15,225 bases of DNA from an uncultured Prevotella sp. (lineage in GTDB: Bacteria > Bacteroidota > Bacteroidia > Bacteroidales > Bacteroidaceae). Location: contig CALIIG010000254.1 in assembly GCA_938018155.1 (NCBI GenBank), positions 1 to 15,225 on the forward strand, written 5' to 3'. The notes beneath the pieces are model-generated. The model was not told where the DNA came from. It was given only the letters and a program-made list of their open reading frames with translations, and did not search any database. This document shows positions 5,622 to 15,225 of the stretch, piece by piece (position 1 is the first letter of the stretch; each line of letters starts with the position of its first letter). Both the position numbers and the translations under genes were made by a program.

Positions 5622-5890
5622 AATAAAATAGCGCAAATATCGTTGATGGCCGATGATTTTTCAGTCTGGGTATGGTTTTTCCTGCCTTTTTAAACGCCTT
5701 TTCCTTTTGTCGGATGACAAGTTTGCAAGGTCGTTATTTGTAAAAACAATTCTGAATTTTCAAGGTTAAAATCATAGTTGTTTTAGAATAATGGTATGTA
5801 TGTAAAGCCATATCGATGTGGTTTTGATTAGCCGTGTTGCAGATGTTTTCCCTTCGTTGAGGCCTTTTTTGCCCTTTACGCCACTATTGT

Positions 5891-5979
5891 GTTGCGTTTA
5901 CGGCGTAATGGCGTTGCGTTTACGGCGTAATGGCGTTGCGTTTACGGCGTAATCGGCGTGCGTTTACGGCGTAATGGTG
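5891..5979. repeat. Four-copy 22-bp tandem repeat with dyad core TTACG-G-CGTAA
   Basis: Units start at 5891, 5913, 5935 and 5958. The first two are identical, the third has one inserted base, and the fourth differs at a few positions. Each contains CGTTTACGGCGTAAT, centred on the odd palindrome TTACGGCGTAA. It sits roughly midway between the start of the MATE gene and the end of the Nudix gene. No ORF reads through it. Function unknown. Confidence 0.9.
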
Positions 5980-6271
5980 AGTTAATTGTGCCGTAAAGGG
6001 GCACTGAAAAGAAAGGAAAAGCATAGATTTGGTGCTGCAAAAAATGTTTTTTAGGCCAGCTTCTCACCTGGTTTTATATGCATTTGTGTCTGCCTTTACG
6101 CCGTGAAGACGTTGGAAAATGGATGAAAAAGGGGTTTGTTTTTTGTGAAAACACACGTAACTTGTTGTGTGTCAGCAACATGGCAAAGCTGTTCATTTCG
6201 GGCGTATTTGCAGCCAACAGGTTACTTACGTGCAAATATCGCAGCCACAGAAGGGCGTTTGTCATATTATT

Positions 6272-10909: not shown

Positions 10910-11059
10910 CAGGAGGATTTCTTTTAGTAGTCAGGAGAATTTCTTTTGGGAGTCAGGAGTTAAGGAGTTAATGGAGTTAAGACAATACCAACGTGGAGTT
11001 AAGACAATACCAACGCACCCAACTAAAATTAAAAACGCACCCAACTAAAATAAAGAATT
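10910..11059. repeat. Composite array of three successive 22-bp duplications
   Basis: The array has pairs of 22-bp units. Pair C starts at 10910 and 10932 (CAGGAG.ATTTCTTTT core), followed by an 18-bp GGAGTTAA-rich linker. Pair A starts at 10972 and 10994 (both copies identical; TGGAGTTAAGACAATACC core). Pair B starts at 11016 and 11038 (CACCCAACTAAAAT core). Units A and B are unrelated except for short matches at the 3' end. It fills the space between the pnp terminator and the convergent CPBP gene. No coding frame or promoter was found. Confidence 0.88.
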
Positions 11060-12896: not shown

Positions 12897-12949
12897 TGCT
12901 CGTGCTGTTTGCGCCATGGAATATCAAGCGTGAAGCCCCGTTTACAAGG

Positions 12950-12980
12950 CAAAGTTACGAAGAAACGCCAACAATAGCAA
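12950..12980 (-). promoter_or_regulatory. Promoter of the ribF-CPBP operon
   Basis: The minus strand reads TTG (12980-12978), 20 bp, then TAACTTTG (12957-12950), matching the Bacteroidetes -33/-7 pattern. The expected transcription start is about 25 bp before the first possible ATG. Confidence 0.7.
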
Positions 12981-13139
12981 GGAAACCACCTTACGATTTA
13001 TCCCTCGCCCAATCGACGGAATGCAAATGTGTCAGCAGGAAGGAATATCTCCACACCGGTCAGAATACTTTTCTTTCATACACGCTTTGATAAGTGTAAA
13101 ATAAGCTATCATTACAGTTGGTATTCTAAATTCAGACTT

Positions 13140-14168
13140 ATGCATTTCAGTATCTTTTCGTTTTTCAGTGGTAAAGACAGGCGGCGGAGAACTGCTGCCG
13201 TAGTGTCTCGGGCAAAGATGGCAGGGACGAAAGGGCAGGGCATCCCTCCCACCTTCTCCTCCGTCCTCCCCTCCGCCTCTCGGAGTGTGGGGCCGTCCAC
13301 CGCCGCAAACTATCTTACGGCGGTGCGTTCGTTTGTCCGCTTCTGTGGCGGGAGCGACGTGCCGCTGTCGGGCATCGACCGCCTCACGGTAGCCCGCTAC
13401 GAACGGTGGCTGCACAGCCGCGGAGTGTGCCCCAACACCTCGTCGTGCTACATTCGCTCGCTGCGTGCCATATATAATAAGGTGGCGGCTGCACGGCGGA
13501 TAAGGAACCGCCATCCCTTCGACGGTGCCTTCACGGGCAATGTGCGCACGGCGAAGCGCAGCCTCACAAGGGCCGAACTCACGAAGCTGCTGCAGACTGA
13601 TGCTGATTCGGGAGGGGCGGCTGGCCTTGCACGCGACCTGTTTCTCTTCTCATTCTGCGCCATGGGCATGCCGTTTGCCGACATGGTGCATCTGCGCCGC
13701 CGCCAGGTCAGAGACGGCACCATTACGTACTGCCGCCGGAAGACGCGCCGTCCCGTCAGCGTGAGGATTGAGTCGAACCTCCGGGCCATCATCAACCGCT
13801 ATGCCGGCGGCACGTCCGACTATCTTTTCCCCGTTCTGTCAAAAGATGGAAATATGCGAAGCTATTCCTCGGCCCTCGGCTGGTACAACCGTCAGCTGAA
13901 GCGGCTGGCCTCGCGGGCCGGCATCGGCACCCCGCTCACGTCGTATACCGCCCGCCACACATGGGCGAGCCTCGCCTACGCCGCCAACGTCAGCCTGCCC
14001 GTCATATCGAAGGCCCTCGGCCATACGAGCACGCAGACCACGCTCGTCTATATCGGTGAAATCAACGACAACCGTGTGGCAGATGCAAATAAAAAGTTGC
14101 TGGACAGTCTGATAACACTGCCTCTTCGCAAGAGGTGTGCGGCTTTGTGTTATCGGCTGCAAAGATAG
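13140..14168 (+). CDS. Bacteroidales-type tyrosine recombinase (probable DNA invertase)
   Basis: Residues about 50-120 form the SAM-like core-binding domain (STAANYLTAVRSFVRF, SSCYIRSLRAIYNK); residues about 140-320 form the catalytic domain. Visible active-site residues are Lys201 (RRKT), Tyr269 in the usual His position and Arg272 (TSYTARHTWAS), His295 (ALGHTSTQTT) and the nucleophile Tyr304 (TLVYIGEI). Box I reads CAMGMPFADMVHL, with Met175/Pro178 where the first catalytic Arg might be expected. Tyr for the box II His and a divergent box I are, as I recall, common in Bacteroidetes relatives. Start ATG 13140 is a choice; the frame is open to 13029 without family-like sequence, and no clear promoter was found. 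The last codons run through the left 27-bp inverted repeat and the promoter at 14160, making this the likely enzyme inverting that segment. Confidence 0.88.
   Translation: MHFSIFSFFSGKDRRRRTAAVVSRAKMAGTKGQGIPPTFSSVLPSASRSVGPSTAANYLTAVRSFVRFCGGSDVPLSGIDRLTVARYERWLHSRGVCPNTSSCYIRSLRAIYNKVAAARRIRNRHPFDGAFTGNVRTAKRSLTRAELTKLLQTDADSGGAAGLARDLFLFSFCAMGMPFADMVHLRRRQVRDGTITYCRRKTRRPVSVRIESNLRAIINRYAGGTSDYLFPVLSKDGNMRSYSSALGWYNRQLKRLASRAGIGTPLTSYTARHTWASLAYAANVSLPVISKALGHTSTQTTLVYIGEINDNRVADANKKLLDSLITLPLRKRCAALCYRLQR
14117..14143 (+). repeat. Left inverted repeat of the invertible segment
   Basis: These 27 bp begin ACTGCCTCTTCGCAAGAGG and end TGTGCGGC, and are identical to the reverse complement of 14291-14317. 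Internally CCTCTT-CGC-AAGAGG is itself a dyad, as expected for paired recombinase binding arms. It encodes LPLRKRCA near the recombinase C-terminus. Confidence 0.95.
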
Positions 14169-14190
14169 GTATTTTAAGAGAATACGGCAA
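14160..14190 (-). promoter_or_regulatory. Promoter inside the invertible segment, pointing left
   Basis: TTG, a 20-bp spacer, then TATCTTTG on the minus strand; spacing is the same as in the ribF promoter. In this orientation it would make RNA antisense to the 3' end of the recombinase gene. Confidence 0.72.
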
Positions 14191-14290
14191 GCATTTTTAC
14201 CGGAAATATTTCCTAACCGTCTCAATACCAGAGCAAACCGACTGCCGGGTATCCCTTTCTCCATTGGCCATACGGTGCTTTTTCCTTTCC

Positions 14291-14317
14291 GCCGCACACC
14301 TCTTGCGAAGAGGCAGT
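14291..14317 (-). repeat. Right inverted repeat of the invertible segment
   Basis: Exact reverse complement of 14117-14143 over 27 bp; the match stops abruptly on both sides. It begins GCCGCACACCTCTTGCGAAG. Confidence 0.95.
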
Positions 14318-14348
14318 CACCAATCGGGTGTACCGGCTATGCTGTTTA

Positions 14349-14360
14349 ACATTAATGTTC
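14349..14360. repeat. 12-bp perfect palindrome AACATTAATGTT
   Basis: A perfect 12-bp palindrome lies between the right inverted repeat and the hairpin array, in the leader that would be transcribed after inversion. It could be an operator-like site. A small hairpin (CCTCC-TGC-GGAGG) follows at about 14364-14376. Confidence 0.35.
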
Positions 14361-14392
14361 AACCCTCCTGCGGAGGATGCCGGAAAGGAAGC

Positions 14393-14524
14393 CTGACGGG
14401 TCCTGCTTCCGTGCCTGACGGGTCTTACTCCCGTGCCCAACAAGTCCTATACTTGTTCACAACAAGTCCTATACTTGTGCGCAACAAGTCCTATACTTGT
14501 GCGCGAGAAGTCCCATACTTGTCA
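14393..14524 (+). repeat. Six-unit 22-bp array of hairpins before the HU-related gene
   Basis: Units start at 14393, 14415, 14437, 14459, 14481 and 14503, exactly 22 bp apart. Each holds a 17-nt dyad. Units 1-2 have ACGGG...(T/C)CCGT stems; units 3-5 have ACAAGT-CCTAT-ACTTGT; unit 6 has one mismatch. Between the two types the stem changes from ACGGG/CCCGT to ACAAG/CTTGT, keeping pairing through compensating changes. It lies 44 bp before the HU-related ATG, in the leader expected from the flipped promoter. TATACTTG in units 3-5 also resembles a -7 box with one mismatch. Confidence 0.9.
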
Positions 14525-14568
14525 TTCACGCCTCCCGTCCGCCCCTGCAGGAACAAAACTTTTAGCTT

Positions 14569-15030
14569 ATGGCTTTCTATAAAAAAGTATTGAAGAAGAT
14601 TAACAACAAGTGGTATCCGCAGTCGGTGCTTGCAGGCAAGCCCGTAACGACGGATCAGGTTGCGAAACGAATCGCAGCCGAATCAACGGTAAGTCCGGCC
14701 GACGTTGCCGCCGTGCTCACCGCCCTCAGCGGCGTGATGGGCGACTATATGGCACAGGGCCGCTCGGTGAAGCTCGACGGCATCGGCTCGTTCTACTTCA
14801 CGGCCACATCGTCGAAGAACGGCGTCGAGAAGCCCGAAAAGGTATCTGCCGCCCAGATTACGGGCGTCCGCGTCCGCTTCACGCCCGAAACCCATTTCCG
14901 CCGCGCATCGGGCAGCCGCATTGCCACCCGCGCCCTGTCCGACGTGGAGGTTGACTGGGAGGAATGGCGCGCCGTAGACAAGAAGAAACCGGAGAAGAAA
15001 CCGGAGCCCGGCGTCACGCCCGAACCCTGA
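14569..15030 (+). CDS. HU-related DNA-binding protein (TIGR01201 HU_rel type)
   Basis: This 153-residue protein begins MAFYKKVLKKINNKWYPQSV, a typical N-terminus of the Bacteroidetes HU-related family. It contains helical residues about 28-65 (VAKRIAAESTVSPADVAAVL, followed by LSGVMGDYMAQG) and the HU-like beta turn SVKLDGIGSFYFTATSS (67-82). The C-terminal tail is Lys/Pro/Glu-rich (KKKPEKKPEPGVTPEP). Relatives bind DNA as dimers in the manner of HU/IHF; whether this one is a nucleoid protein, a regulator or a recombination helper is unknown. No -7 box lies directly upstream; transcription probably depends on the invertible promoter at 14117-14317. A hairpin follows the stop codon directly. 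G+C is visibly higher than in the left part of the window. Confidence 0.85.
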   Translation: MAFYKKVLKKINNKWYPQSVLAGKPVTTDQVAKRIAAESTVSPADVAAVLTALSGVMGDYMAQGRSVKLDGIGSFYFTATSSKNGVEKPEKVSAAQITGVRVRFTPETHFRRASGSRIATRALSDVEVDWEEWRAVDKKKPEKKPEPGVTPEP

Positions 15031-15049
15031 CCGGCAGTCAGGCTGCCGG
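15031..15049 (+). promoter_or_regulatory. Hairpin immediately after the HU-related stop codon
   Basis: CCGGCAG (15031-15037) and CTGCCGG (15043-15049) form a 7-bp GC-rich stem with a 5-nt loop, starting on the base after TGA. No U-tract follows, so it is more likely an mRNA-stabilising or processing structure between cotranscribed genes than a terminator. Confidence 0.45.
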
Positions 15050-15105
15050 AGTGGCAACGGCACGCCGCTGTCCCCGGGCAATCCGCAACATAAAACATTT
15101 AACCT

Positions 15106-15155
15106 GCCCCGCGCAACACGTCTTCCTCGCGTTTTCAGGAAACATGGAGCGGGGC
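15106..15155 (+). promoter_or_regulatory. Nested stem-loop leader before the last gene
   Basis: GCCCCGC (15106-15112) pairs with GCGGGGC (15149-15155), and inside it TTCCT (15123-15127) pairs with AGGAA (15137-15141). The structure ends 17 nt before the ATG at 15173, followed by A-rich sequence suited to Bacteroidetes translation initiation. It may protect or regulate the small gene's mRNA. Confidence 0.35.
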
Positions 15156-15172
15156 GCAAAAACAACAAACAT

Positions 15173-15225
15173 ATGAAGAAAACAGAACAGAAAACGAAAC
15201 AGGCGTACGTAAGGCCCGCAGTATG
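15173..15225 (+). CDS. Start of a small MKK...YVRPAV-type protein (partial)
   Basis: The ATG opens MKKTEQKTKQAYVRPAV before the window ends. The pattern MKK(x)nY.RP.V/E is common at the N-terminus of short Bacteroidales/Prevotella peptides (often 50-100 residues, some ending in Gly- or Cys-rich tails), whose roles are mostly unknown. It follows the HU-related gene by 142 bp in the same direction, with a structured leader between, so it probably belongs to the same phase-variable unit. The rest of the protein is not visible, so any function is unassigned. Confidence 0.55.
   Translation, partial: MKKTEQKTKQAYVRPAV

What the first reader, a model, noticed from the sequence alone, without database searches (positions are those of the whole stretch)
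14117..14317. Invertible promoter next to a tyrosine recombinase, caught in the OFF orientation
Seen: a perfect 27-bp inverted repeat 147 bp apart, with abrupt ends, enclosing a promoter (TTG-N20-TATCTTTG) that points left, away from the HU-related gene, plus a tyrosine recombinase gene abutting the left repeat. Known: Bacteroidales use tyrosine recombinases and short inverted repeats to flip promoters of surface loci. Inferred: inversion would switch on the hairpin leader, the HU-related gene (14569) and the MKK-type gene (15173). In the present orientation the promoter gives RNA antisense to the recombinase, a possible feedback on the switch. That the controlled gene is an HU-like DNA-binding protein, not a capsule or fimbrial gene, would make this a switch on a regulator.
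Basis: partly seen in the sequence, partly recalled or inferred. Interest (0 to 1): 0.87.

Follow-up and report, generated by a model that had tools for sequence, protein, structure and literature searches.

The report
Flip-flop promoter beside its recombinase
A Prevotella-like bacterium carries a short DNA segment with a promoter that a neighbouring enzyme can probably flip, turning a likely surface-protein operon (led by a DNA-binding HU-like gene) on or off; the general trick is well known, but the repeatedly conserved layout of this family is worth recording.

Summary
A perfect 27-bp inverted repeat (14117-14143/14291-14317) encloses a leftward Bacteroidales-type promoter; the left repeat lies inside, not beside, the 3' end of a tyrosine-recombinase gene. 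Relatives of this recombinase (about 50% identity or more) carry an inverted pair of CCTCTT-N3-AAGAGG at the same place, with the promoter's -7 box at a fixed distance from its nearest site. Inversion is supported in relatives: near-identical segments sit in opposite orientations in two loci of one Phocaeicola abscessus genome, a 68-bp block has changed sides between two paralogous loci of another genome, and two database recombinases end in exactly the tails predicted for the flipped state. Of 18 scorable loci, 16 (window included) point at the recombinase (OFF), 2 are ON. For the window itself flipping is inferred. The target is probably a surface operon whose first gene is HU-like, not a lone regulator: some relatives' switches precede fimbrillin- or OmpA-type genes, and the next, truncated ORF resembles small genes that precede large lipoproteins. 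New member of a known kind (Bacteroidales invertible promoter with local recombinase). Untested extra: antisense RNA from the OFF promoter could restrain the recombinase.

The parts
13140..14168 (+). tyrosine recombinase gene (342 aa from ATG); its last codons read through the left repeat and the complement of the -7 box
   Evidence: ORF; Phage_integrase E=6.9e-12, Phage_int_SAM_5 E=1e-11; K202, R273, H274, H296, Y305 invariant in an 11-sequence alignment, Pro179 at the position aligned to Arg I of 4a8e (residue 1 = codon at 13137)
14117..14143 (.). left inverted repeat; core site CCTCTTCGCAAGAGG at 14121-14135, read in frame as P-L-R-K-R
14291..14317 (.). right inverted repeat; core site CCTCTTGCGAAGAGG at 14299-14313
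14144..14290 (.). 147-bp segment predicted to invert
   Evidence: the corresponding segments of relatives are found in both orientations
14160..14190 (-). Bacteroidales-type promoter TTG-N20-TATCTTTG, presently pointing left (OFF for the HU operon)
   Evidence: same distance to the nearest site in 18 of 18 scorable loci
14400..14531 (+). six tandem 22-nt units in the leader of the HU gene, three of them perfect short palindromes
   Evidence: (family D2: 44-nt copies at 22-nt steps); leader 14318-14568 folds with z=-3.51
14569..15030 (+). HU-like DNA-binding protein (HU-HIG), first clear gene downstream of the switch
   Evidence: 78% identical over residues 1-138 to the HU beside the same kind of switch in L072
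15173..15225 (+). start of a small ORF MKKTEQKTKQAYVRPAV, cut by the window end; resembles small YVxP genes of relatives
   Evidence: by-eye comparison with L001, L002, L003, L005 and L093

Best explanation
A site-specific invertible promoter with its own tyrosine recombinase. The recombinase acts on two inverted CCTCTT-N3-AAGAGG sites, one inside its own 3' end and one upstream of the operon, and flips the promoter between them. In the sequenced state the promoter faces left, antisense to the recombinase, and the operon (HU-like gene, small YVxP-type gene, probably a surface protein beyond the window end) is OFF. After inversion the same promoter would start RNA roughly 20 nt before the core of the right site and read through the hairpin leader into the operon; inversion would also replace the last residues of the recombinase. 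Shown by sequence: repeats, promoter motif, recombinase with four of the usual catalytic positions, conserved geometry, both orientations among relatives. Inferred: that this strain flips, that the recombinase does it, that expression follows orientation, and what lies beyond 15225.
For: Perfect repeats. Inverted site pairs at the recombinase 3' end in 5 of 5 relatives found in the genome scan, with 3-4 pattern hits per genome against 0-1 for the reversed control; more in G079 and G340. The central 3 nt differ between loci but correspond within every pair seen. The -7 box lies 43-45 nt (as printed) from the outer edge of its nearest site in 18 of 18 scorable loci, with a 20-nt spacer to TTG or CTG in 16 of 18. 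P. abscessus loci C1 and C3: 265-bp segment 98.5% identical but inverted, 425 bp of downstream flank 97.4% identical in the same orientation. L117/L118: block changed sides. P0005 and P0003 carry exactly the flipped tails predicted for L001 and L003. Mfa_like_1, DUF3575 and Mfa2/DUF5119 genes downstream in L003 and L032.
Against: No flipped copy of this very locus was seen: the one near-identical recombinase listed (P0001, 99%, a representative of 15 sequences I could not see) has the OFF tail, and no genome is held for the window. No listed protein carries the flipped tails predicted for the window, L004, L005, L072 or the outer site of L002. The canonical Arg I is absent, although relatives sharing this seem to invert. 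The surface gene lies outside the window; 4 of 7 large downstream ORFs scanned (L005, two of L072, the 900-aa ORF of L032) hit no Pfam family. Only 1 of 40 HU loci examined stands beside such a recombinase.
Confidence: 0.82

Rival explanations
1. The switch serves mainly to turn a DNA-binding regulator (HU) on and off, with effects elsewhere in the genome.
For: HU is the first clear gene downstream here; in L072 it follows after one small ORF; L001 keeps an HU remnant near that position. No surface gene is visible in the window.
Against: The same switch in L003 and L005 has no HU in the stretch fetched but keeps two small YVxP-type genes and then a 909- or 928-aa ORF; L002 has no HU either, but its contig ends about 0.8 kb after the right site. 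The window's next ORF is of the small type. Related HU genes often stand behind small-gene/large-ORF pairs without a switch (10 of 40).
Confidence: 0.12
2. A once-invertible element that is now locked OFF in this strain (recombinase inactive or silenced).
For: Present orientation OFF; the 99% relative P0001 is OFF too; the Arg I position is Pro.
Against: Recombinase ORF intact, repeats perfect over 27 bp, and relatives with the same Pro show inversions.
Confidence: 0.1
3. A MITE-like element or a pair of transcription-terminator hairpins, not a recombination substrate.
For: 201-bp element with terminal inverted repeats; each core is itself a small hairpin.
Against: Sites recur at the 3' end of one recombinase family and are rare elsewhere in the same genomes, the interior holds a positionally fixed promoter, and flipped copies exist in relatives.
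Confidence: 0.02

Closest known systems
Bacteroides fragilis Tsr19/BF2766 switch IVp-I (PMC4747536, passages read)
   Same: local tyrosine recombinase, adjacent invertible promoter, several repeat copies possible between promoter and genes, OFF orientation prevalent in wild type, surface-related operon
   Different: target is an extracellular polysaccharide operon and a second, distant promoter is flipped too; kinship of its recombinase or repeats with this family was not tested
Tyrosine recombinases inverting promoters of outer surface proteins in B. fragilis (Weinacht et al. 2004: only the citation seen, in PMC12632263) and inverton groups near fimbrillin and site-specific integrase genes (PMC11892184, passages read)
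   Same: invertible promoter next to a recombinase, fimbrillin-family targets, Bacteroidales promoter
   Different: their repeat motifs are in supplements I could not open, so identity of motifs is unknown; an HU-led operon or a site inside the recombinase gene is not mentioned in the passages read
E. coli fimE-fimS switch (PMC9993118, passages read)
   Same: recombinase gene next to the invertible element, so inversion changes what follows the recombinase gene
   Different: fimE is controlled through a Rho-dependent terminator in fimS; here the candidate is antisense transcription and a changed C-terminal tail; no kinship was tested

Membership tests
Bacteroidales invertible promoter with local tyrosine recombinase | inverted repeats flanking a short segment | tested here: met
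Bacteroidales invertible promoter with local tyrosine recombinase | promoter of Bacteroidales type inside the segment | tested here: met
   TTG-N20-TATCTTTGC; -7 consensus TANNTTTGY as printed in PMC12632263
Bacteroidales invertible promoter with local tyrosine recombinase | adjacent intact tyrosine recombinase | tested here: met
   the Arg I position is Pro
Bacteroidales invertible promoter with local tyrosine recombinase | both orientations occur | tested here: inconclusive
   supported in relatives; not seen for the window's own locus
Bacteroidales invertible promoter with local tyrosine recombinase | orientation controls transcription of the neighbouring operon | not testable with these tools
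   needs RNA data
Bacteroidales invertible promoter with local tyrosine recombinase | recombinase catalyses the inversion | not testable with these tools
   needs an in vitro or knockout assay
Type V pilus / fimbrillin-like operon (as target) | fimbrillin-like structural gene downstream | not tested
   window ends at 15225; inferred from L003 (Mfa_like_1) and L032 (DUF3575; DUF5119/Mfa2), while 4 of 7 ORFs scanned had no Pfam hit

The most novel reading that the evidence does not exclude
The switch edits and restrains its own enzyme. One recombination site is part of the recombinase's coding end, so each flip rewrites the protein's tail, and in the OFF state the promoter transcribes the recombinase antisense. 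OFF would then be self-stabilising and ON self-erasing, with an HU-like protein made only in ON as a possible further co-factor.
Probability: 0.2. Interest if true: 0.65.

Novelty: new member of a known kind. Interest (0 to 1): 0.42.

Why it matters
It outlines a compact recombinase-plus-site family with a recognisable core (CCTCTT-N3-AAGAGG) and a promoter at a fixed distance, seen here in Prevotella, Alloprevotella, Phocaeicola abscessus and in G340, which holds the Bacteroides zoogleoformans protein P0050. That makes such switches findable by pattern and an OFF bias testable. If the antisense or tail-swap reading holds, it would offer an explanation for a bias like that reported for Tsr19, where supplying the recombinase from a plasmid abolished the OFF preference (PMC4747536).

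Tried and rejected
MITE/terminator reading: disfavoured by site distribution and flipped copies. Viral origin: scans of viral contigs with recombinase and HU, which reach close relatives only, confirmed none. Rfam: no match at E<=1 for 12900-15225. Solved structures: one weak recombinase match (4a8e, E=1.7e-05), none for HU. A function for the swapped tail: flipped tails are not alike between loci and the OFF tail is explained by the promoter DNA it overlaps, so I claim no protein-level role. Hairpin array as an HU-specific operator: weakened because 22-bp arrays occur elsewhere in the window. Papers: searches for intragenic inversion or a site in the recombinase's own gene and for this HU family or its repeats listed nothing on the point; the library is partial.

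Rows dropped before the orientation count: L116 (contig ends inside the segment); L006, L115, L120 (single unpaired sites) and the G1075:C10 hit (single, not fetched); L036, L037 (other repeat); L038, L039 (no comparable pair at the 3' end). L007-L031 are shorter copies of loci already named. In several loci further TTTGCA-like words occur inside the segment; I scored the one that aligns with the others at 43-45 nt.

Full report
WHAT IS THERE. The window's right end holds a recombinase gene (13140-14168), a perfect 27-bp inverted repeat 147 bp apart (14117-14143 and 14291-14317), a leftward promoter between the arms, a leader with short tandem palindromes, an HU-like gene (14569-15030) and the start of a small ORF (15173 on). 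About 8e-10 pairs of this length are expected by chance. The left repeat lies inside the recombinase ORF, so the gene ends within the segment. Inverting the segment on paper changes the residues after PLRKR from CAALCYRLQR (10) to a 33-residue tail beginning CAAERKKH.

FAMILY. A scan of the genome collection with the recombinase confirmed 5 loci at 50-58% identity: Prevotella sp. DNF00663, uncultured Prevotella RUG136, Alloprevotella sp. OH1205, Phocaeicola abscessus, Prevotella sp. SUG528. All 5 have at the recombinase 3' end an inverted pair of CCTCTT-N3-AAGAGG, some with extra copies. A whole-genome pattern search of these 5 gave 3-4 forward hits each against 0-1 for the reversed control. 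All lie at such switches except one unpaired hit in G003; G004 has two pairs. In a sample of 399 genomes of the family, 9 had a match at E<=1e-70: G001, G002, G003 and six new ones. Of the new ones, G079 and G340 hold 17 and 10 sites and G273 and G099 none; G041 and G113 were not pattern-searched. By position, 15 of the 17 sites in G079 and 10 of 10 in G340 fall in pairs or clusters; those examined stand beside recombinases, and most beside DUF3575-type genes. The central three bases differ between loci (CGC, GGT, GGC, GCT, ACG and so on) but correspond within each pair seen. Against generality: matches at 44-47% identity have another repeat (L036, L037) or no comparable pair at the 3' end (L038, L039), and in L072 (49%) the left site has one mismatch, ACTCTT.

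PROMOTER GEOMETRY. In 18 of 18 scorable loci the -7 box lies 43-45 nt, as printed, from the outer edge of its nearest site; counted to the same base it is 43 each time (my count). A 20-nt spacer to TTG or CTG is present in 16 of 18; L002 and L003 lack it. Strict TANNTTTG is met in 6 of 18 (window, L001, L002, L003, L005, L072); the others differ at one or two positions.

INVERSION IN RELATIVES. (a) P. abscessus carries two loci. A 265-bp segment is 98.5% identical but inverted, while 425 bp of downstream flank are 97.4% identical in the same orientation. The second locus (L040) is ON; no recombinase was found in the 13,438 bp fetched around it. (b) In G340, L117 and L118 have about 97% identical flanks. 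A 68-bp block ending in a site lies on the operon side in one and on the recombinase side in the other, with the promoter OFF in both; I read this as two successive inversions. (c) P0005 (96.4% to L001) ends in exactly CGNGRKSSW and P0003 (94.8% to L003) in exactly CGREGKSSW, the tails predicted for flipped L001 and L003. P0009 (93.3% to L002 and to L003) ends in V, as predicted for their inner right site, a one-residue match. No listed protein has the flipped tail predicted for the window, L004, L005, L072 or the outer site of L002.

ORIENTATION. 16 of 18 loci, from the window and 8 genomes, are OFF and 2 ON (L034, L040). A coin-flip model gives 0.0007, but 6 loci come from G079 and 4 from G340, so they are not independent, and assemblies show majority states.

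TARGET. Of 7 downstream ORFs scanned, 3 hit Pfam: Mfa_like_1 (L003), DUF3575 with a sub-threshold OmpA match (L032), DUF5119 with Mfa2 (L032). Four hit nothing: the 928-aa ORF of L005, two of L072 and the 900-aa ORF of L032. HU follows the switch in the window and in L072, a genome holding P0123 and P0021, both named as from Prevotella sp. HUN102; there one small YLQP ORF precedes HU. L001 keeps an HU remnant. A database contig of 10,970 bp may hold both a recombinase (P0008) and an HU (P0134); this rests only on equal contig length. A genus sample of 398 genomes gave 51 HU places in 20 genomes. I fetched 40 of the 51. One (L072) stands beside such a recombinase; L077 and L081 show weak recombinase hits 4-7 kb away. 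At 10 of the 40 (L085, L087, L088, L089, L093, L101, L102, L103, L105, L109) the printed rows show a small YxxP gene, a large ORF and then HU; this was judged by eye, without family scans. I therefore see HU as a member of a surface operon, with moderate confidence.

MECHANISM. K202, R273, H274, H296 and Y305 are invariant in an 11-sequence alignment. The position aligned to Arg of 4a8e is Pro, shared by relatives that show inversion. That the integrase IntDOT also lacks Arg I is recalled, not tested. A site-like motif near the C-terminus occurs in 42 of the 120 listed homologues by my rule. For fimE, inversion connects or disconnects a terminator and so affects FimE production (PMC9993118). 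For Tsr19 the OFF prevalence vanished when the recombinase came from a plasmid (PMC4747536). The present geometry offers antisense RNA as an analogous route, untested.

NOVELTY. Invertible promoters with nearby recombinases, including fimbrillin targets, are established (passages of PMC12632263 and PMC11892184). I file this as a new member whose particular features are the site inside the recombinase gene, the fixed promoter distance and the HU-led operon. My paper searches (on such switches; 61, 79 on orientation control; 63, 65 on the in-gene site; 64, 75 on HU) listed no description of these features, in a partial library and by title, abstract and passages only.

Noticed in passing
window 14400-14531; L074, L085, L093, L094, L096, L097 upstream of HU: The 420 bp upstream of these HU-like genes are rich in short palindromes: 69 seen against 20 in mononucleotide shuffles over 46 loci, the repeat cores of window and L072 counted in. 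L074 has the window's ACAAGTCCTATACTTGT unit twice.
   Followed up: partly
window 5875-5984, 10972-11055, 14400-14531: Three separate places outside the long ORFs carry tandem arrays with the same 22-bp period but different sequence.
   Followed up: no
window 13659-13676 (recombinase codons for AMGMPF): Where Arg I is expected this clade reads AMGMPF. A motif found the spot in 99 of 120 homologues, 74 with AMGM and none with Arg at the captured residues; the aligned Pro is invariant in 11 sequences.
   Followed up: partly
L114, L034 (G079), L117, L118 (G340), L001, L002, L003, L005: Several switches have three or four sites, so more than two arrangements are possible, as in a small shufflon.
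   Followed up: partly
P0122: A database copy of this HU lacks 16 residues (VRFTPETHFRRASGSR) present in the window copy; strain variant or assembly artefact.
   Followed up: no
L036, L037: Recombinases at 44-45% identity with a different inverted repeat stand before a gene that looks like a capsule UpxY antiterminator (by eye, name recalled).
   Followed up: no
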